64,000 nucleotides of DNA. It comes from Hydrogenothermaceae bacterium (lineage in GTDB: Bacteria; Aquificota; Aquificia; Aquificales; Hydrogenothermaceae). The translations under genes and the position numbers were made by a program. This document shows positions 2-7,444 of the stretch, in pieces. Numbering within the stretch: the stretch's first letter is position 1; each line of letters opens with the position of its first letter. The stretch is from contig WIAL01000020.1 in NCBI GenBank assembly GCA_015519975.1, forward strand, positions 1-64,000, in the 5' to 3' direction. The notes under the pieces are model-generated. The model searched no databases, had not been told where the DNA came from, and saw nothing but the letters and a program-made list of their open reading frames with translations.

Positions 2-1336
2 TTTATAGGTTTAATTATATATAGGAAAAACAGAAAAGAAATAGTTTATAAGATTTTATTGTTTATTTTACTTACCAATCCAGTTTATTTTTTTAGTTCA
101 CTATTGCCATCGATATTTCACTATATAAAAACTTATATATTAAAAATATCAGAAAATTCTTTCATATTACCAATTACTGTAAGTAAAGAAATAACAGAAT
201 TAACGGGTATTTCATTAGCTGAATTTATAGATTTTACTACCAATAATATAATTATATTAATTTTAGCAATAACTGGAATATTTTTATTATTCAAAACCAA
301 TAAAAATATATATCTATCTTTACCATTTATAGTAATTGGACTTTTGTCATTTTTTGGAGGAAATAGATTTTTAATATATATTTCTCCATTTATTGGTATG
401 GGATTGGGTTATATTACTTATCAAATATACAACTTTGCAAATAAAAAATTAACTTCAAATCTTTTAGTTAAATTTATTTACTCTATTTTAATTATTTCTT
501 TGGTATTTTTTTCAATACCTCCAAATACTGTAAAAGCCAATATTAAACCAATATTTAGAGAAAACATCTATGAAGATTTAGAAACTATTTCTAAGATAGA
601 AAAAATGCCTCTAGATTCATTTATAATGTCATGGTGGTCTTATGGGGGATTATTAACTTACTTTTTTGAAAGAGGAACATATGTAAGCAATTCTTCTATG
701 GATTCAATAAAATTATTTGCTATTGCAAATATTTTAATGTCAAATAATGAAAGAGATGCATTGAATATTATTTCTTTTTTAACAAATAACAAAAAAATAT
801 TTTATCAAAGTTATATTAAAACACCTGAAGATTTTTTAAATGCCTCCTTAAAATACAGTAAACCACCTAAAAATAATGTTTATTTATTTCTATTCCCCGG
901 AATGTTAACAAATAAAGTTATATATACTTATGGAACTTATTCAGTAAAAAATAATCAAAAATCAGGAGTGGATTTATTCTTTAAATGTTTACCTAAATTA
1001 GAAAATATATTTGACTGCGGAGTAATAGAATATAACTCTTTTTCAGGATATATAAAATTTAAAAATAAAAAATTTAAAAATCAATATCTTAAAGATATTT
1101 TAATCATAAGAAAAAATGTTTTTCCAAAACTTATTCAAAAGAAGATTTTCAATGAAAATGGTACTAAAACAATTGAAATTATCGAAACAAAAAAGGATGT
1201 GTATATAATAGTAGCTAATAAGATTTTTATTAATTCTATTTTAAATAAGATGTTTGCATTAGAAAGTAATTTCAAACATTTTAAATTAATTTATTCAGAT
1301 TTTCCTTATATCATCGTTTACAAGGTGGAAAGATGA
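2..1336 (+). CDS. pglB: PglB/STT3-like oligosaccharyltransferase, C-terminal part (5' end outside window)
   Basis: The reading frame is open to the first base of the window, so this is the 3' part of a longer membrane protein; a TTG at 59 is probably internal. It resembles the second half of bacterial PglB, which moves a lipid-linked glycan onto protein asparagine in the periplasm. The visible part has several transmembrane segments, a GGNRFLIYISP stretch matching the PglB region with the conserved Arg, then a soluble domain opening with WWSYG at 632-646. The family signature is WWDYG, so the Asp is Ser here. Its stop codon overlaps the start of the following prepilin gene, which suggests coupled translation and a pilin substrate. 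The family call is fairly secure; the substrate is inference. Confidence 0.75.
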   Translation, partial: FIGLIIYRKNRKEIVYKILLFILLTNPVYFFSSLLPSIFHYIKTYILKISENSFILPITVSKEITELTGISLAEFIDFTTNNIIILILAITGIFLLFKTNKNIYLSLPFIVIGLLSFFGGNRFLIYISPFIGMGLGYITYQIYNFANKKLTSNLLVKFIYSILIISLVFFSIPPNTVKANIKPIFRENIYEDLETISKIEKMPLDSFIMSWWSYGGLLTYFFERGTYVSNSSMDSIKLFAIANILMSNNERDALNIISFLTNNKKIFYQSYIKTPEDFLNASLKYSKPPKNNVYLFLFPGMLTNKVIYTYGTYSVKNNQKSGVDLFFKCLPKLENIFDCGVIEYNSFSGYIKFKNKKFKNQYLKDILIIRKNVFPKLIQKKIFNENGTKTIEIIETKKDVYIIVANKIFINSILNKMFALESNFKHFKLIYSDFPYIIVYKVER

Positions 1337-1638
1337 ATTCAAAAGGCTTTTCTATTATAGAATTACTTGTTGTAATTTTTATAATTACTCTATTAACGTC
1401 TATAGGATTTATATCTATTTCAAAATATCTAAAAAATTCTTACAGGGCAACAGCAATGAGCAATGCAAGAAATTGTTTAACTATTGTACATGCAGCTTTA
1501 TTAGAAAATGAAACTCCTAATGTACCGCAAAATTGCCAAATAAATAATGATTTTACATCTTGCACATGTACTGTAGAAGGATTTGCAGGGTCTGTAACAT
1601 GTACACTTGAAGAAGGAGGGATAGTTGAATGTAACTAA
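1333..1638 (+). CDS. Small cysteine-rich type IV prepilin-like protein
   Basis: The 101-residue protein opens with a class III signal, MNSKG^FSIIE, cut by prepilin peptidase after Gly5, with the conserved Glu at mature position 5 and a hydrophobic helix up to about residue 30. The mature protein is only about 96 residues and has six Cys (48, 68, 77, 79, 90, 100), enough for three disulfides. There is one N-X-T site (N59-E60-T61), but it lacks the acidic residue at -2 preferred by Campylobacter PglB and is followed by Pro. The start codon overlaps the stop of the oligosaccharyltransferase gene. It could be a major or minor pilin or a pseudopilin; which one cannot be told from sequence. Confidence 0.85.
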   Translation: MNSKGFSIIELLVVIFIITLLTSIGFISISKYLKNSYRATAMSNARNCLTIVHAALLENETPNVPQNCQINNDFTSCTCTVEGFAGSVTCTLEEGGIVECN

Positions 1639-1652
1639 ACAAATACAAACTA

Positions 1653-2090
1653 TTATTTAACCTTATATACAAACTCTATTTCTGCCTTTTCGTTTGGTTT
1701 ATTAGAGTTTTTAGCTACAACTCTTACTGTATAAACTTTTATCTGATTACCATTAATATCTACAAAAGATTCTTTTCCAAGTAAATATGCTTCTACACTA
1801 TAATTCCCAAAATTTGATTGAATTAAATCTATTTTGCATGTATTTGAAATACTTGTTGGACAAGGTGTACAGGAACTACCATTACATTTTAAATCTCCGG
1901 AGAGGATATTGCTAATTACAAGGTTTGCTCCACCTTTTGCTGCTTCTAAAGCAGTATAATATCTTTTTTCAACCCCTGAAATCTTAGTTCCACTAGTTAA
2001 AAAATATAAAAGAGCTCCAATAAATGCCAAAGCTATTAATCCTAATACTAGTGTTGTTACTAAAGCTATTCCTTTCTGATTATTTTTCAT
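1653..2090 (-). CDS. pilX: PilX-like minor pilin
   Basis: This 145-residue protein has a prepilin leader MKNNQKG followed by the hydrophobic stretch IALVTTLVLG. The mature position 5 is Thr rather than Glu, as in PilX and GspK, the minor pilins at the tip of the initiation complex. A four-Cys cluster lies in the middle (residues about 69-85). It is the last gene of the minor pilin operon, 9 bases after pilW, and faces the + strand prepilin gene with a gap of only 14 bases. The family assignment rests on leader type, size and gene order. Confidence 0.7.
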   Translation of the reverse strand: MKNNQKGIALVTTLVLGLIALAFIGALLYFLTSGTKISGVEKRYYTALEAAKGGANLVISNILSGDLKCNGSSCTPCPTSISNTCKIDLIQSNFGNYSVEAYLLGKESFVDINGNQIKVYTVRVVAKNSNKPNEKAEIEFVYKVK

Positions 2091-2099
2091 ACTATCACC

Positions 2100-3080
2100 T
2101 TATAAATCCATTGGTTTAACTTTTATTATTAAAGGCTTCCATCTGTAGTGTATATAATCAGCAGGGAGTTTTAAAAGTTCACCATTCACGATAACGCACT
2201 TATTAGAACCACAATCTGATGCTTGAGCAAATGTATAATTTAAATCATATCTTCCTTCTTGAACTAAAATATATACATTTATAGCTTTTAGTTTACTTCT
2301 AATATCACCATTTGTTGCAGGTAAAGTAGTTTGATTTTCTTCCCCTGAATCTATTACTCCATTTCCATCTAAATCAATATCAAAAGTAACAGTCCAATCA
2401 GCAACACAGTTTAATATAGGTTCTCCAGGTGATGATGTCCCTACTTTTCTTTTAAGATTATAAATATTAGGATTGCATCTATCTATTAAATTTGAATTTG
2501 AAAGATAGTATGTTATTTGTTCACAGTAAGAGTCTGAGCATCCATTTGCTGCCCCATTATATACAACATCTCTTACAGGAAAAGCAATGTATATTTTTTT
2601 ATTTATACATGTTTTACTTATTAACGTAATTGTATCTGGAGCTGTAGATTCTATTTCTCCTTTATCAAAAAATTTCTTATTTTCTGTATCAATTACAACA
2701 ACATAAGGATTATTAGTCTTATCTTCTCTTCCATCATAGGTTATCTCCAAAGTACCTCCATTACATTTTGCAAGAATATATCCTCTTGTTTTTGAATTTG
2801 TATTATTTAGTGTAGTTCTTAAGATAAGTTCTTTATTAGTACTATCCCAATAAATTATTTGTGCAGTTTCATCTTCAGGTATTCCATATCCTACATGTTC
2901 TAAGTCTAATCTTAAAATATCAAGACCTATCAAACTTTCTATCTGGGTTGAAATTTTTTCACTCTCTGATTTAAAACCTTTTAATAGCTTTATATATGTA
3001 AGATACGCAGCCGAAAGTACAACTCCTACGATAAAAAGCGTAACTAAAAGCTCTGTAATTGTGAAACCTTTTTTATTCAT
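2100..3080 (-). CDS. pilW: PilW-like minor pilin
   Basis: The 326-residue protein has the prepilin leader MNKKG^FTITE with Glu5, a transmembrane helix to about residue 28, and a long extracellular domain with several Cys pairs. Length, and its place between pilV-like and pilX-like genes, match PilW, a minor pilin that helps prime pilus assembly and present PilY1. A loop DLDGNGVIDSGEE (near residue 235) looks like a calcium-binding DxDxNG loop. Its ATG overlaps the end of the pilV-like gene by four bases, so translation is probably coupled. Confidence 0.75.
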   Translation of the reverse strand: MNKKGFTITELLVTLFIVGVVLSAAYLTYIKLLKGFKSESEKISTQIESLIGLDILRLDLEHVGYGIPEDETAQIIYWDSTNKELILRTTLNNTNSKTRGYILAKCNGGTLEITYDGREDKTNNPYVVVIDTENKKFFDKGEIESTAPDTITLISKTCINKKIYIAFPVRDVVYNGAANGCSDSYCEQITYYLSNSNLIDRCNPNIYNLKRKVGTSSPGEPILNCVADWTVTFDIDLDGNGVIDSGEENQTTLPATNGDIRSKLKAINVYILVQEGRYDLNYTFAQASDCGSNKCVIVNGELLKLPADYIHYRWKPLIIKVKPMDL

Positions 3081-3469
3081 GAAGACCCCACTAAAGTTTC
3101 TATGGTGTGTGAATAAGTTTTACCTTTATATGTCCAAGTTACAGTTATTTTTACTTGTTTAATTTTTCCTGCAACTATTTCTGATGAAGTCACATTTATA
3201 TTATAGGTAATATCTGCATTTCTAATTTTCCTATTAATTTCAAATGTATCATTTGTTGGAATATTACTTAATCCAAAATTTCTATATTTTTCTGCGTATT
3301 CATTAGCAATTTTTACAGCTTCATCTCTAATCAGATTTCTTGTAGATATTTCATACGCTGTTATTAAAGCAGATAAAAGACCAAGGAGCAGTATAGCAAG
3401 AATGACTAAAGCTACCAAAGCCTCTACTATTGTAAAACCTTTATAATTCCTATGGATTCTGATTAACAT
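3077..3469 (-). CDS. pilV: PilV-like minor pilin
   Basis: The 130-residue protein has a basic leader ending NYKG^FTIVEA, with the cut after Gly11 and Glu5 conserved, then the hydrophobic helix ALVALVILAILLLGLLSA. Size, the VEALVALVIL pattern and its order between fimT-like and pilW-like genes fit the PilV/GspI type of minor pilin. The start lies 20 bases inside the preceding fimT-like gene, so the two are translated from overlapping frames. Confidence 0.75.
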   Translation of the reverse strand: MLIRIHRNYKGFTIVEALVALVILAILLLGLLSALITAYEISTRNLIRDEAVKIANEYAEKYRNFGLSNIPTNDTFEINRKIRNADITYNINVTSSEIVAGKIKQVKITVTWTYKGKTYSHTIETLVGSS

Positions 3470-3911
3470 TATTACATTTCTCCATTTTTACTCTTATATC
3501 ACTTACTCTAATGCAGTCATACTGTGCTTCATTACCATGTGGATAATAAATTGGTCCCCCTAAAAATGTACCTCTTTTACTTATATTCACAGTATTTCCA
3601 GTAAAACTATTTTTAAGTTGAATACACTTTATATTTCCTGTTCCATATAAAGATATACAGTCATTATCACCAGTATCACATTTCATACAAACTTCATTTC
3701 CATTTACAACTACATCAAGTTTTATTTTTTCAGCAAATGCTTTTGCCCGTGCATCTTGCAAAAATGCGTAAATTGCTTTTGTATCACTTTCTATATTGTA
3801 CTTTTTTATCCATTTAAAAAACTGTGGTATAGCAATAGATAAAATTATAGCCGTAACAGCAATAACAACTAAAAGCTCTATTAAACTAAAACCTTTTATT
3901 TTTCTAGCCAA
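3450..3911 (-). CDS. fimT: FimT/GspH-like minor pilin
   Basis: The 153-residue protein begins MARKIKG^FSLIEL, a standard prepilin peptidase site with Glu5, followed by a helix rich in Val, Ile and Ala. The segment after the helix (AFLQDARAKAFAEKIKLDVVV) matches the pattern of FimT/GspH pseudopilins. FimT proteins in some bacteria bind DNA during natural transformation, which would fit the dprA gene elsewhere in the window, but that role is inference. It overlaps the end of pilY1 by 16 bases. Confidence 0.75.
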   Translation of the reverse strand: MARKIKGFSLIELLVVIAVTAIILSIAIPQFFKWIKKYNIESDTKAIYAFLQDARAKAFAEKIKLDVVVNGNEVCMKCDTGDNDCISLYGTGNIKCIQLKNSFTGNTVNISKRGTFLGGPIYYPHGNEAQYDCIRVSDIRVKMEKCNNVNQNP

Positions 3912-6900
3912 AGTATTATTTCTCCTTCTAATGATCCAGGTAATACAGGTATACCACCTTGCTCAGATGCTACTCCTCGCTTAAATTCTGTAGCTCTTCC
4001 TCCCTTATTTGAAAAAGATTCAGCTTTGAATTGTTCTATATTACCACCAGATAATTGTACCAAATACATTAATATAGTATTAGTTACAGTATAACCTGGA
4101 CATCTCTGACTGAATGCTGGATCTCCTGTCGCACAGTTCATAGCCCATGCCCTTGATCTTCCACCAAATCCACATAAATCAGCTGTAGGCTGAGTAGTTG
4201 TAAAAAATACAATATTGTTAGATATTGATGGGTCTGAGATATTTCTTTCTTTTAAATACACATTATCTCCAAGATCAAGATCTATCATCCATGCTCCTTG
4301 AGTCTTATCTGCAATATTTTCACATGCAAGTTCCGTTGTTGCAGAATGAACTGGATTGATAGTTCCTGTTGGACAATTATTATTCTCATCACACAAGAAA
4401 GGAACTCCATAAAGAGCATTTTGACTTTGGTCATCATCTGTTTTATAGAAATATCTACCTGTTCCAAAATAAAGGAACCATTTATCAAAACATTTGCTTG
4501 CTATTACAGGAGCAGTAACAGGATTATTTGCAAAGTTAAGTAATGTCTCATCAAAATCCCATTGATTAGGATTTGCACTTCCAGTCCAAATTTTTAATAC
4601 ACCACCTTTAGCTGTTGACTTTCCAACTTTTCTAGAATATCCTAAAAATACATAATCAGTTTGACCATCTTCATTTACATCAAGTCCATTATTAAAGAGC
4701 CTTCCTCCAAAAGAGTTAGAGAAATTTTGACCTAAATCTTTATCAAGTAATAAACTTCCCGTTGCTAAATCTAAAACAAATATATGCAAATTTTGGTTTG
4801 TATATCCTTCATATGATGTGGGTCCAGATGCAAATATTACAAAATGTTTCCAATTTCCATTTCCATCTTTTCTTTTAACATAAGCCGGACCTGAATAAGT
4901 AAATCCAAGATTAGGATTAGTGAATTCCCAAAGAAGTTTAGGGCTGTTTATATCTGTTACATCAAGGGCATAATATTCTGATAGCCCAACACAAGTACCA
5001 GACGAGAGATCAGGACAGGTATCGGACGGTGGTATAACACAGTTTGTTCCACTGCAGTTACAACCGCCACCAAGCCTAAGTCCTCCAACTAAAACTATTT
5101 CATCCTTACCATCGTTATTATAATCTATATTTATTAAATAAGGAGCTAAGTCGTGTATATACAAATGACAATAGTCCGGATCTGCTAAATACCTTAAATA
5201 AGGTAAAGCATGTTTCGGGATAAATGCCCAAAGTTCCTTTCCTAAGTCCGTTCCTGTTAGCTTAGCAATGTAATTTCCATTTAAATCTTGAACTTTACCT
5301 GCTTCAAAAGCGTGTAGCATACCATCATTGGAAGCAGTAAATATTACACCATGTTTTAAATTTCCATTTTTATCTTTATAATAAGCTATTTTAGGAGATG
5401 AGTAAATAATATCTGCTAATTTCCAAATATCTCCTGCATCATTAGTTTTTCTACTTCTACATCCAGGAATATCATCACCTCTTATATAGTTGACTAAATT
5501 TTTATAGTTAATAGAATTACTTGTATTATCAATTAAACAATTTGGAAATTCATTTATATCATTACCTAAATTGTTTTTAAAACTTTGTAAATTAGTATCT
5601 ATAAATTCTATTAAAGAATTATTATTCCCAACTGTATATATTACTCTATCAGAAGATTGTCTATTTTTAAGCTGTTCTCCTGCTTCCCAAAGATATTTTA
5701 CTTCATCTAGAGATGTATATGCTGGTGTAATTTCAGTTCCTTTTGTACCATCAGGATTTGAAGAAAAACGGTGAATTTTAAGATTTCCATAACTATCCAA
5801 AACAAATTCTAAAATATTATCATCTTTTATGCTTAGTTTATTATCCTGATTTGTATCTTCTCTTATATTCTGAGCATCTTTTGTATTTAAAAACCAATAT
5901 GTAAATAACTGACCTATCCAGTTTACTTTATAATTACCAAAAGTTTTTTGGGGATAAAATACAGCTTGAGTTACTAATGCACCTTTTGAATCTTTTTCTG
6001 ATAAAACAGATACAGATGTACCTGAAGCAGTCCTTTGTAATATATTTCTCAAAAATTTTAGAAGGGAATTTTTTATTTCTATAGCATTTTGGGCGCTTAA
6101 AAAATTATCAGGGACTCCATCCCCATTAGAATCCCAATCAGGAGATGATGGAGGAAGCGGTGTACAGGCACTTCCTCTTCCACTTCCACAATCATCCATT
6201 TCACATGTATCCCATGGATATTGTCCACCATTTCCATTCCAGTGAGCAGTATCATCTGTACCATACGGCCATGTATATTGGGAAATATCAAAAGAACCAT
6301 AAACAGCTACATTTTTAAGGGATTGCTCTCCAGTGCCACCTAAAAATAGCCCTAAAGAATAAATAGCTTCCACGTTAATTGTAAATTCATTACCACTTAA
6401 ACTGGACAATATTCTGTTTAAAAGCTTATGCATCCAATAAGCTGGAACAACTGGATCTGCAGAATAATTCTCATATCCTGTTTCAATATTACAGGTCAGA
6501 TATAAGTTTCCTCCAACATTCCACTGTCCATCTGAAGCAAGTATTACAAAATTTTTAGCACAAGGAACAGGCTTGCAATTTTGCCTTTGATAATCACAAA
6601 AGTAATTTGGATCTGCTGCTGTTCCAGGATCTATAGTGAATCCATTACTATAACTATGATCATTAGATTGTTTAAAGTAATCATAAGCTTCCCACATTGC
6701 AGGTGCTGTACCTGTTGCACCGCCAGGGGATACATAATTTATAGCTCTTTTTACATAAGTGTAAGGGTGATCAGGATCTGCATTATTACCATTAGGATAA
6801 TCTCCTATATATACTTTATCTGGATATATAAATGTATCGTAAAATAAAACTCCAAATCTTGGACGATTTTTTTCATTTTCAAATTCTTGTAGTACTCCTT

Positions 6901-7444
6901 TTATTCTTTCTTTAGGAACCGAAATTCTATATCCAGCATCTGTTATTAGGATACATGTATCGCTAGTACATGCCAAATCTGGATCGCAATTTATATCTGT
7001 AAAACTGCTACATCCTTCTGGCCTACCTCCTGTTAATGCCCATCTAAGAAGGTCTATCCTCGCCATTAAATGATAATTCAAACAACTACCTTTATAAGGT
7101 GTATTTCTATATAAAGTTGTTGATTCTGAACAATTTTCAGGAGGTGACGTGGTTTCTTCCCAAATCCATTCTATACATCTTCCTCTCCTATTATAGCTAC
7201 TACATACATATTGATAAACCTTATCAGGAATAAAATATCCTTCCTCATCTCCATTATAAGTACCACTATAAGCATTTCCGCTCATACTTCCACTTTTGTC
7301 AACTATTAAAAGAACATTAGGAGATACAGCAGTATTTAAAAAAGGAGGAACTTGACAATAATTTGTCATACTGTAAGAAAAAGAAAAATTGAAAATTAAA
7401 AGATTTAATATCAATGTTATTAATAAACTATTTAATAATTTCAT
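3896..7444 (-). CDS. pilY1: PilY1-like pilus tip adhesin / assembly protein
   Basis: The 1182-residue protein has a Sec signal peptide (about residues 1-24), a von Willebrand A-like domain with a MIDAS site DKSGSMSG (Asp49), and a C-terminal half typical of the PilY1 beta-propeller (TASNDGMLHAFEAG, then LWAFIPKHALPYL). Several Asp-rich loops look like calcium sites: DTNQDNKLSIKDD, DSNGDGVPDNF, DYNNDGKDE and DVNEDGQTD. PilY1 sits at the tip of type IV pili, is needed for assembly and retraction control, and acts in adhesion and surface sensing. Many Cys residues in the N-terminal half suggest disulfides. It lies in the minor pilin operon and overlaps both its neighbours. Confidence 0.9.
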   Translation of the reverse strand: MKLLNSLLITLILNLLIFNFSFSYSMTNYCQVPPFLNTAVSPNVLLIVDKSGSMSGNAYSGTYNGDEEGYFIPDKVYQYVCSSYNRRGRCIEWIWEETTSPPENCSESTTLYRNTPYKGSCLNYHLMARIDLLRWALTGGRPEGCSSFTDINCDPDLACTSDTCILITDAGYRISVPKERIKGVLQEFENEKNRPRFGVLFYDTFIYPDKVYIGDYPNGNNADPDHPYTYVKRAINYVSPGGATGTAPAMWEAYDYFKQSNDHSYSNGFTIDPGTAADPNYFCDYQRQNCKPVPCAKNFVILASDGQWNVGGNLYLTCNIETGYENYSADPVVPAYWMHKLLNRILSSLSGNEFTINVEAIYSLGLFLGGTGEQSLKNVAVYGSFDISQYTWPYGTDDTAHWNGNGGQYPWDTCEMDDCGSGRGSACTPLPPSSPDWDSNGDGVPDNFLSAQNAIEIKNSLLKFLRNILQRTASGTSVSVLSEKDSKGALVTQAVFYPQKTFGNYKVNWIGQLFTYWFLNTKDAQNIREDTNQDNKLSIKDDNILEFVLDSYGNLKIHRFSSNPDGTKGTEITPAYTSLDEVKYLWEAGEQLKNRQSSDRVIYTVGNNNSLIEFIDTNLQSFKNNLGNDINEFPNCLIDNTSNSINYKNLVNYIRGDDIPGCRSRKTNDAGDIWKLADIIYSSPKIAYYKDKNGNLKHGVIFTASNDGMLHAFEAGKVQDLNGNYIAKLTGTDLGKELWAFIPKHALPYLRYLADPDYCHLYIHDLAPYLINIDYNNDGKDEIVLVGGLRLGGGCNCSGTNCVIPPSDTCPDLSSGTCVGLSEYYALDVTDINSPKLLWEFTNPNLGFTYSGPAYVKRKDGNGNWKHFVIFASGPTSYEGYTNQNLHIFVLDLATGSLLLDKDLGQNFSNSFGGRLFNNGLDVNEDGQTDYVFLGYSRKVGKSTAKGGVLKIWTGSANPNQWDFDETLLNFANNPVTAPVIASKCFDKWFLYFGTGRYFYKTDDDQSQNALYGVPFLCDENNNCPTGTINPVHSATTELACENIADKTQGAWMIDLDLGDNVYLKERNISDPSISNNIVFFTTTQPTADLCGFGGRSRAWAMNCATGDPAFSQRCPGYTVTNTILMYLVQLSGGNIEQFKAESFSNKGGRATEFKRGVASEQGGIPVLPGSLEGEIILWLEK

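What the first reader, a model, noticed from the sequence alone, without database searches (positions are those of the whole stretch)
2..1638. PglB-like oligosaccharyltransferase translationally coupled to a small prepilin gene, with a WWSYG variant
The stop codon of an oligosaccharyltransferase gene overlaps the ATG of a type IV prepilin (1333-1336). The OST signature WWDYG reads WWSYG (632-646), changing the residue near the +2 Ser/Thr binding site. A dedicated pilin-glycosylating N-OST with changed sequon preference would be unusual outside the Campylobacterota. The pilin has only one N-X-T (Asn59), without the acidic -2 residue.
Basis: partly seen in the sequence, partly recalled or inferred. 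Interest (0 to 1): 0.6.

Follow-up and report, generated by a model that had tools for sequence, protein, structure and literature searches.

The report
Pilin-locus STT3-type glycosyltransferase in Aquificota
A heat-loving bacterium carries, wedged between two pilus-subunit genes, an enzyme of the family that attaches sugar chains to asparagine in animals and archaea; in close relatives the same spot holds a different kind of sugar-transferring enzyme or none, which suggests an exchangeable kit for sugar-coating pili.

Summary
Window 2-1336 is the last 444 codons of a 657-codon STT3/PglB-family gene; its start lies on another contig, directly behind a major-pilin gene. The stop overlaps the ATG of a small prepilin (ATGA, 1333-1336). 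WWDYG reads WWSYG, and a second near-invariant acceptor-loop Asp is also Ser (only row of 74 with both). Catalytic residues are intact.

New here: the enzyme belongs to a fast-evolving OST clade that sits in pilin loci (prepilin within 200 nt in 12 of 15 clade rows; 0 of 45 general OSTs). In relatives the same slot holds a TMEM260-like (PF11028) enzyme, an OST stub, or nothing. A third type (Wzy_C/PglL-like) sits among pilins of a second pilus system. Closest functional parallel: P. aeruginosa tfpO/tfpW pilin cassettes.

Not supported: N-X-S/T sequons are no denser in OST-linked pilins than in control pilins, and +2 Ser/Thr use does not differ (p 0.24), so 'changed sequon preference' stays open. 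STT3 homologues outside Campylobacterota are common (53 of 136 Aquificota genomes). No glycan was observed; function is inferred. New variant of a known kind: a pilin-modification cassette with an N-OST-family enzyme.

The parts
2..1336 (+). C-terminal 444 codons of the STT3/PglB-family OST gene; the first 213 codons lie on contig C47:3-770(-), outside the window
   Evidence: PglB 3RCE E 3.5e-67 with family profile A1; fold match to PglB
197..199 (+). codon of the Glu equivalent to PglB E319 (external loop 5)
   Evidence: invariant E66 of the fragment; E in 74 of 74 rows
632..646 (+). WWSYG, variant of WWDYG (Ser codon 638-640)
   Evidence: D in 67, S in 6, E in 1 of 74 rows
686..688 (+). Ser where 71 of 74 rows have Asp (loop Asp, C. 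jejuni PglB D475)
1322..1328 (+). AAGGTGG, ribosome-binding-like site of the small prepilin inside the OST gene
   Evidence: sequence
1333..1336 (+). ATGA overlap of OST stop and prepilin start
   Evidence: same 4-nt overlap in L008/L132 and behind the OST stub of G028
1333..1638 (+). 101-aa prepilin, one N-X-S/T (Asn59)
   Evidence: (N_methyl)
1653..2090 (-). PilX-like minor pilin (145 aa), convergent operon (sub-family name recalled)
   Evidence: family F7 kept at the same place in relatives
2100..3080 (-). minor prepilin, PilW-like
   Evidence: (N_methyl 7e-7; PilW below cut-off)
3077..3469 (-). minor prepilin
   Evidence: N_methyl 6.5e-9
3450..3911 (-). minor prepilin, FimT/GspH-like (sub-family name recalled)
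   Evidence: N_methyl 1.6e-7
3896..7444 (-). PilY1-like protein
   Evidence: PF05567 E 5e-8

Best explanation
It is the glycosyltransferase gene of a pilin cassette: major pilin, STT3-family OST, second pilin. The enzyme is thought to take a polyprenyl-pyrophosphate-linked glycan at the outer face of the inner membrane and transfer it to the periplasmic domains of the neighbouring pilins before pilus assembly, most simply to Asn in N-X-S/T. Translational coupling and tight linkage would keep enzyme and substrate together when the cassette is gained, lost or swapped. Shown by sequence: family and fold, intact catalytic residues, gene overlap, conserved pilin linkage, replacement of the enzyme at the same locus. 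Inferred: activity, that pilins are the substrate, Asn as the acceptor, the donor lipid, and any role in hiding pili from phages (by analogy with P. aeruginosa).
For: Profile and fold match to PglB. D56, R147, D154, D156 and E319 equivalents kept. OST clade with SH-aLRT 100 in which 12 of 15 rows have a same-strand prepilin within 200 nt; two of the three misses are cut at the 5' contig edge. General OSTs with at least 1 kb on both sides: 0 of 45. One chromosomal locus holds an OST (G016, G017), an OST stub (G028), a TMEM260-like enzyme (G018) or no enzyme (G022, G015). Within the window's genus at one locus: OST between pilins (own), pilin-pilin-OST (G004), pilin only (G003). TMEM260-like genes over the Pfam cut-off have a same-strand prepilin within 500 nt in 13 of 14 genomes. 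The own genome has a cluster with ManC-, PglC-, Wzx- and GT-like genes, a possible donor route.
Against: N-X-S/T is as over-represented in pilins next to TMEM260-like enzymes (1.60) and in pilins with no enzyme (1.44) as in OST-linked pilins (1.47), so sequons give no independent support for Asn as acceptor. One OST-linked pilin has none (in L030). The own enzyme lacks two acceptor-site Asp residues; changes at these positions inactivate C. jejuni PglB (D459V, D459N-S492C, D475F/Y; PMC3527161 passages). L032 is a clade member with no pilin nearby. The pilin-linked OST is the only OST found in the own genome, so it could also serve other proteins.
Confidence: 0.6

Rival explanations
1. The STT3-fold enzyme is pilin-dedicated but no longer follows the N-X-S/T rule: loss of the WWD Asp (and here also the loop Asp) means another acceptor motif or residue, with specificity set by the pilin fold.
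For: D to S in three lineages (own; L139/L031 as TWSYG; L044/L023/L024 as WWSEG) and D to E in L034; all of these are in the pilin-linked clade or next to GspG. The TWSYG pair and WWSEG trio are under purifying selection (dN/dS about 0.14, and 0.08 to 0.23; dS near saturation). Sequons do not separate OST-linked from control pilins.
Against: Pilins next to xWS enzymes still carry N-X-S/T sites: own 3 and 1, L139 3 and 3, L031 3 and 1. The +2 Ser/Thr split (9/5 against 26/33) is not different (p 0.24). The GspG pseudopilins next to WWSEG enzymes have no sequon, but whether they are substrates is unknown.
Confidence: 0.2
2. It is a general N-OST that happens to sit beside pilin genes.
For: Only OST in the own genome. 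PglB of Campylobacter is a general OST (recalled). General Aquificota OSTs exist (Desulfurobacteriaceae and others).
Against: Prepilin linkage in 12 of 15 clade rows against 0 of 45 general OSTs. Gain, loss and replacement at the pilin locus.
Confidence: 0.12
3. The own copy is inactive or decaying; WWSYG and the second Ser are signs of loss.
For: Two Asp residues lost; OST absence or loss is seen in G028, G022, G003.
Against: 657 codons open across two contigs and all catalytic residues kept. Other xWS copies are under purifying selection. No near relative of the own copy is held, so its own dN/dS cannot be computed.
Confidence: 0.08

Closest known systems
P. aeruginosa pilA-tfpO / pilA-tfpW pilin glycosylation cassettes
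   Same: Unrelated glycosyltransferase genes alternate with the major-pilin type and modify that pilin (PMC11841053, passages).
   Different: Enzymes there are TfpO and TfpW, adding O-antigen units or D-arabinofuranose; here the alternates are an STT3-family OST and a TMEM260-like (PF11028) enzyme. No glycan shown here.
PglB of Campylobacter (bacterial N-OST)
   Same: Same family, catalytic residues and fold.
   Different: PglB keeps WWDYG, R331 and the loop Asp; this one has WWSYG, Phe and Ser. Scores 70 bits against the 1300-bit NCBIfam PglB cut-off (444-aa fragment; full-length relatives 89 to 102).
Archaeal AglB acting on type IV pilins
   Same: STT3-family enzyme and pilin substrate; PilA pilins N-glycosylated in Haloferax (PMC8241124 passages). 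A 2015 review says pilin N-glycosylation 'appears to be limited to the archaea' (PMC4371748 passage).
   Different: This one is bacterial and locus-linked to pilins. That AglB is not paired with single pilin genes is recalled, not tested.
PglL/TfpO-type O-OTases (Wzy_C)
   Same: Also found among pilin genes in Aquificota: 6 of 6 loci fetched.
   Different: Different family; in a second pilus system (GFTLIELAIVLVIIG pilins with PilB/PilC-like genes).

Membership tests
STT3/PglB/AglB oligosaccharyltransferase | catalytic acidic residues and Arg (PglB D56, R147, D154, D156, E319) | tested here: met
   own D, R, D, D, E; kept in every row with a letter there (69, 72, 74, 74 and 74 of 74 rows, the rest gaps)
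STT3/PglB/AglB oligosaccharyltransferase | profile and fold similarity to solved OSTs | tested here: met
   3RCE 3.5e-67; 6GXC E 3.3e-20, TMq 0.74 for the 444-aa fragment; model pLDDT 86.8
STT3/PglB/AglB oligosaccharyltransferase | WWDYG +2 Ser/Thr pocket | tested here: not met
   own WWSYG; D in 67 of 74 rows. So it is placed with the STT3 family by catalytic core and fold, not claimed as a proven N-X-S/T transferase
PglB equivalog (NCBIfam NF050801) | score over curated cut-off 1300 | tested here: not met
   70.3 bits (window fragment), 88.7 and 102.2 (full-length relatives)
PglB (Campylobacter type) | Arg331 reading an acidic -2 residue | tested here: not met
   Phe in own; the eight commonest residues printed for the column include no Arg
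N-linked protein glycosylation system | glycan on Asn of N-X-S/T in the substrate | not testable with these tools
   no mass spectrometry; sequon density does not discriminate
pilin-modification cassette (tfpO/tfpW-like organisation) | glycosyltransferase gene beside the major pilin, exchanged between strains or species | tested here: met
   and the TMEM260-like replacement
pilin-modification cassette (tfpO/tfpW-like organisation) | enzyme modifies the linked pilin | not testable with these tools
   inference only

The most novel reading that the evidence does not exclude
Aquificota pilin loci carry an exchangeable slot filled by an STT3-family OST or a TMEM260-like O-mannosyltransferase relative, and the STT3 members, freed from a general N-glycosylation role, have repeatedly given up the 'strictly conserved' WWD Asp. 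In those lineages an STT3-fold enzyme recognises its acceptor by the pilin fold and not by N-X-S/T, possibly modifying a residue other than sequon Asn.
Probability: 0.2. Interest if true: 0.85.

Novelty: new variant of a known kind. Interest (0 to 1): 0.6.

Why it matters
Bacterial pilin glycosylation is known as O-linked, and pilin N-glycosylation was described as limited to archaea (PMC4371748 passages). A pilin-dedicated STT3 family in bacteria, exchanged with a TMEM260-like enzyme at one locus, would extend both pictures. It also offers natural, selected variants of the WWD motif, so the question of what the +2 pocket Asp is needed for becomes directly testable.

Tried and rejected
Sequon test as support for N-glycosylation: rejected by its own controls (OST-linked 73 observed against 49.8 expected, reversed motif S/T-X-N 64 against 49.7; TMEM260-linked 56 against 35.0; no enzyme 35 against 24.3; convergent minor pilins 60 against 53.7). 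Leaving out N-C-S/T did not change this (p 0.50 against TMEM260-linked, 0.50 against no enzyme, 0.96 against both). +2 Ser/Thr shift in xWS enzymes: p 0.24. Mutual exclusion of pilin-clade STT3 (20 genomes, my count) and TMEM260-like (14) across 136 genomes: no overlap at pilin loci, but p 0.095, not significant; the synteny evidence is what counts. G103 and G104 carry TMEM260-like plus a non-pilin-linked STT3. A Nitrospira bin (L028, GC 57.7%) belongs to the clade; contamination looked unlikely from GC but is not excluded. Presence of PF02397 does not follow the OST: G016 and G017 have the OST without it. Plasmid collection: no match.

Papers (PMC open library only; ten searches): no paper held all of oligosaccharyltransferase, Aquific- and pilin; none held TMEM260 and pilin or DUF2723 and bacteria; the three papers with pilin N-glycosylation phrases are about archaea by title. 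Passages only were read of PMC4894442, PMC7226087, PMC11841053, PMC8241124, PMC11292533, PMC3527161, PMC3703281 and PMC4371748 (PMC11164674: term search, no occurrence). The other papers were seen in listings only.

Full report
WHERE IT IS. The window starts at the edge of contig C8 of a 1.92 Mb, 65-contig genome. A same-genus OST locus is also held under the title 'Hydrogenothermus sp.' (L031 = L014/G002), so the family is taken as Hydrogenothermaceae, Aquificota. The first 132 bases equal the end of contig C47 with one silent mismatch. C47 gives the first 213 codons of the same gene and, 18 nt upstream, a 135-aa PilA-like prepilin. Order: pilA, OST (657 aa), 101-aa prepilin overlapping by ATGA, then a convergent operon of minor pilins and a PilY1-like gene.

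WHAT THE PROTEIN IS. A profile of 13 relatives finds C. lari PglB (3RCE E 3.5e-67; 5OGL 3.7e-65), then STT3 and AglB. An AlphaFold2 model of the window's 444-aa part (pLDDT 86.8) matches PglB best (6GXC E 3.3e-20, TMq 0.74). Residues equivalent to PglB D56, R147, D154, D156 and E319 are kept. Pfam alone is below its cut-offs (20.1 of 23 bits). The protein is not a PglB equivalog by NCBIfam (70 of 1300 bits for the fragment).

THE MOTIF. In PglB the WWD residues hydrogen-bond the +2 Ser/Thr, and R331 reads an acidic -2 residue (PMC7226087 passages). Among 74 OSTs the WWD Asp is Asp in 67, Ser in 6 and Glu in 1. The Ser cases are three lineages: own (WWSYG), L139/L031 (TWSYG; also W to T) and L044/L023/L024 (WWSEG). 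Own also has Ser at a loop position that is Asp in 71 of 74 (Ala in L117, gap in one). In C. jejuni PglB, D459V, D459N-S492C and D475F/Y were inactive (PMC3527161 passages). Pairwise dN/dS is about 0.14 for the TWSYG pair and 0.08 to 0.23 in the WWSEG trio (dS is near saturation), so those variants are under selection. No close relative of own is held. Sampling caveat: the scan used patterns that allow D or S at this position, while the phylum search did not depend on them.

LINKAGE TO PILINS. 53 of 136 Aquificota genomes have an OST match; the scan of named genomes added 59 loci. In a 74-row tree (quick method) own falls in a clade of 15 (SH-aLRT 100) in which 12 have a same-strand prepilin within 200 nt. 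Of the other three, L034 and L036 are cut at the 5' edge and L032 truly lacks one. A second Aquificaceae lineage (L120, L121, L073) and one Acidobacteria row (L060) are also pilin-linked. Of 45 general OSTs with at least 1 kb on each side, none is (Fisher 6e-13 for 17 of 20 against 0 of 45, but rows are related and three of the 20 were chosen for linkage). Tip branches in the pilin clade are long (many near 1 change per site).

THE SLOT. In one syntenic locus of genus g7 and its neighbour g6 the pilins are accompanied by an STT3 OST (G016, G017), an OST stub of the last 35-47 codons whose ATGA overlap with the small pilin survives (G028), a TMEM260-like protein with glycosyltransferases behind it (G018), or nothing (G022, G015). 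In the window's genus one locus has own (OST between pilins), G004 (pilin-pilin-OST) and G003 (pilin only). PF11028 is over its cut-off in 14 of 136 genomes; 13 of the 14 have a same-strand prepilin within 500 nt, the 14th (G103) being 330 nt from a contig edge. Most are followed by GT4 or GT9 and GT2 genes; a polyprenyl-phosphate-mannose synthase role for the GT2 is recalled, not tested. TMEM260 itself is a GT117 protein O-mannosyltransferase of animals (PMC11292533 passages). The pilins served are up to 66% identical between enzyme types. A third type, Wzy_C proteins of about 590 aa with weak PglL_A matches in three of five scanned, lies between or beside prepilins of another pilus system in 6 of 6 loci fetched, out of 39 genomes over the Wzy_C cut-off among 112; these six were picked mostly for their long frames.

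SEQUONS. Observed/expected N-X-S/T in soluble pilin parts: OST-linked 1.47 (32 pilins), TMEM260-linked 1.60 (23), no enzyme 1.44 (13), minor pilins 1.12 (24). Locus means do not differ. D or E at -2 in 4 of 73. +2 Ser/Thr: WWD enzymes 26/33, xWS enzymes 9/5, p 0.24. So the sequence of the pilins neither supports nor excludes Asn as acceptor.

MECHANISM. Shown: family, fold, catalytic core, gene overlap, linkage, replacement. Inferred: transfer from a polyprenyl-pyrophosphate donor (own contig C54 has ManC-, PglC-, Wzx-, UDP-galactopyranose-mutase- and GT-like genes; names beyond PF02397 are by eye) to pilins in the membrane pool. The nearest parallel is P. aeruginosa, where unrelated TfpO and TfpW glycosylate their own pilin type and protect against pilus phages (PMC11841053 passages).

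VERDICT. 'Dedicated pilin glycosyltransferase' is the best reading; 'N-linked' is the default for the family; 'changed sequon preference' is an open and testable question.

Noticed in passing
L131 5400-7000 (G028): OST deleted but for its last 35-47 codons between pilA and the small pilin; ATGA overlap kept.
   Followed up: yes
L154, L155, L157, L158, L160-L162, L169-L173, L175: TMEM260-like (PF11028) proteins beside tandem pilins, mostly with GT4/GT2 genes behind; no paper holding both TMEM260 and pilin was found.
   Followed up: partly
L179-L184: Wzy_C/PglL-like ~590-aa proteins between or beside prepilins of a second pilus system with PilB/PilC-like genes; G004 has this and a pilin-linked STT3 OST.
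   Followed up: partly
L017, L023, L024 (L044, L038, L040): STT3 OSTs with WWSEG sit directly before gspG (TIGR01710 E 2e-48) and, in L017, a GspE-like ATPase: an OST in a type II secretion locus whose pseudopilin has no N-X-S/T.
   Followed up: no
L016, L018, L019: OST (WWDFG) stop overlaps the start of hisIE by 4 nt, an unexplained coupling.
   Followed up: no
L013:3497-3913(-): Second pilin carries a tandem duplication of its helix (LLELIIVVAILSLLLSI twice).
   Followed up: no
L068: Contig titled 'DPANN group archaeon' holds a Persephonella-like pilin-pilin-OST locus; probably mis-binned.
   Followed up: no
G000:C54 (L178): Glycan cluster of the own genome: mannose-1-P guanylyltransferase-, PglC-, Wzx-, Glf- and GT-like genes.
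   Followed up: partly
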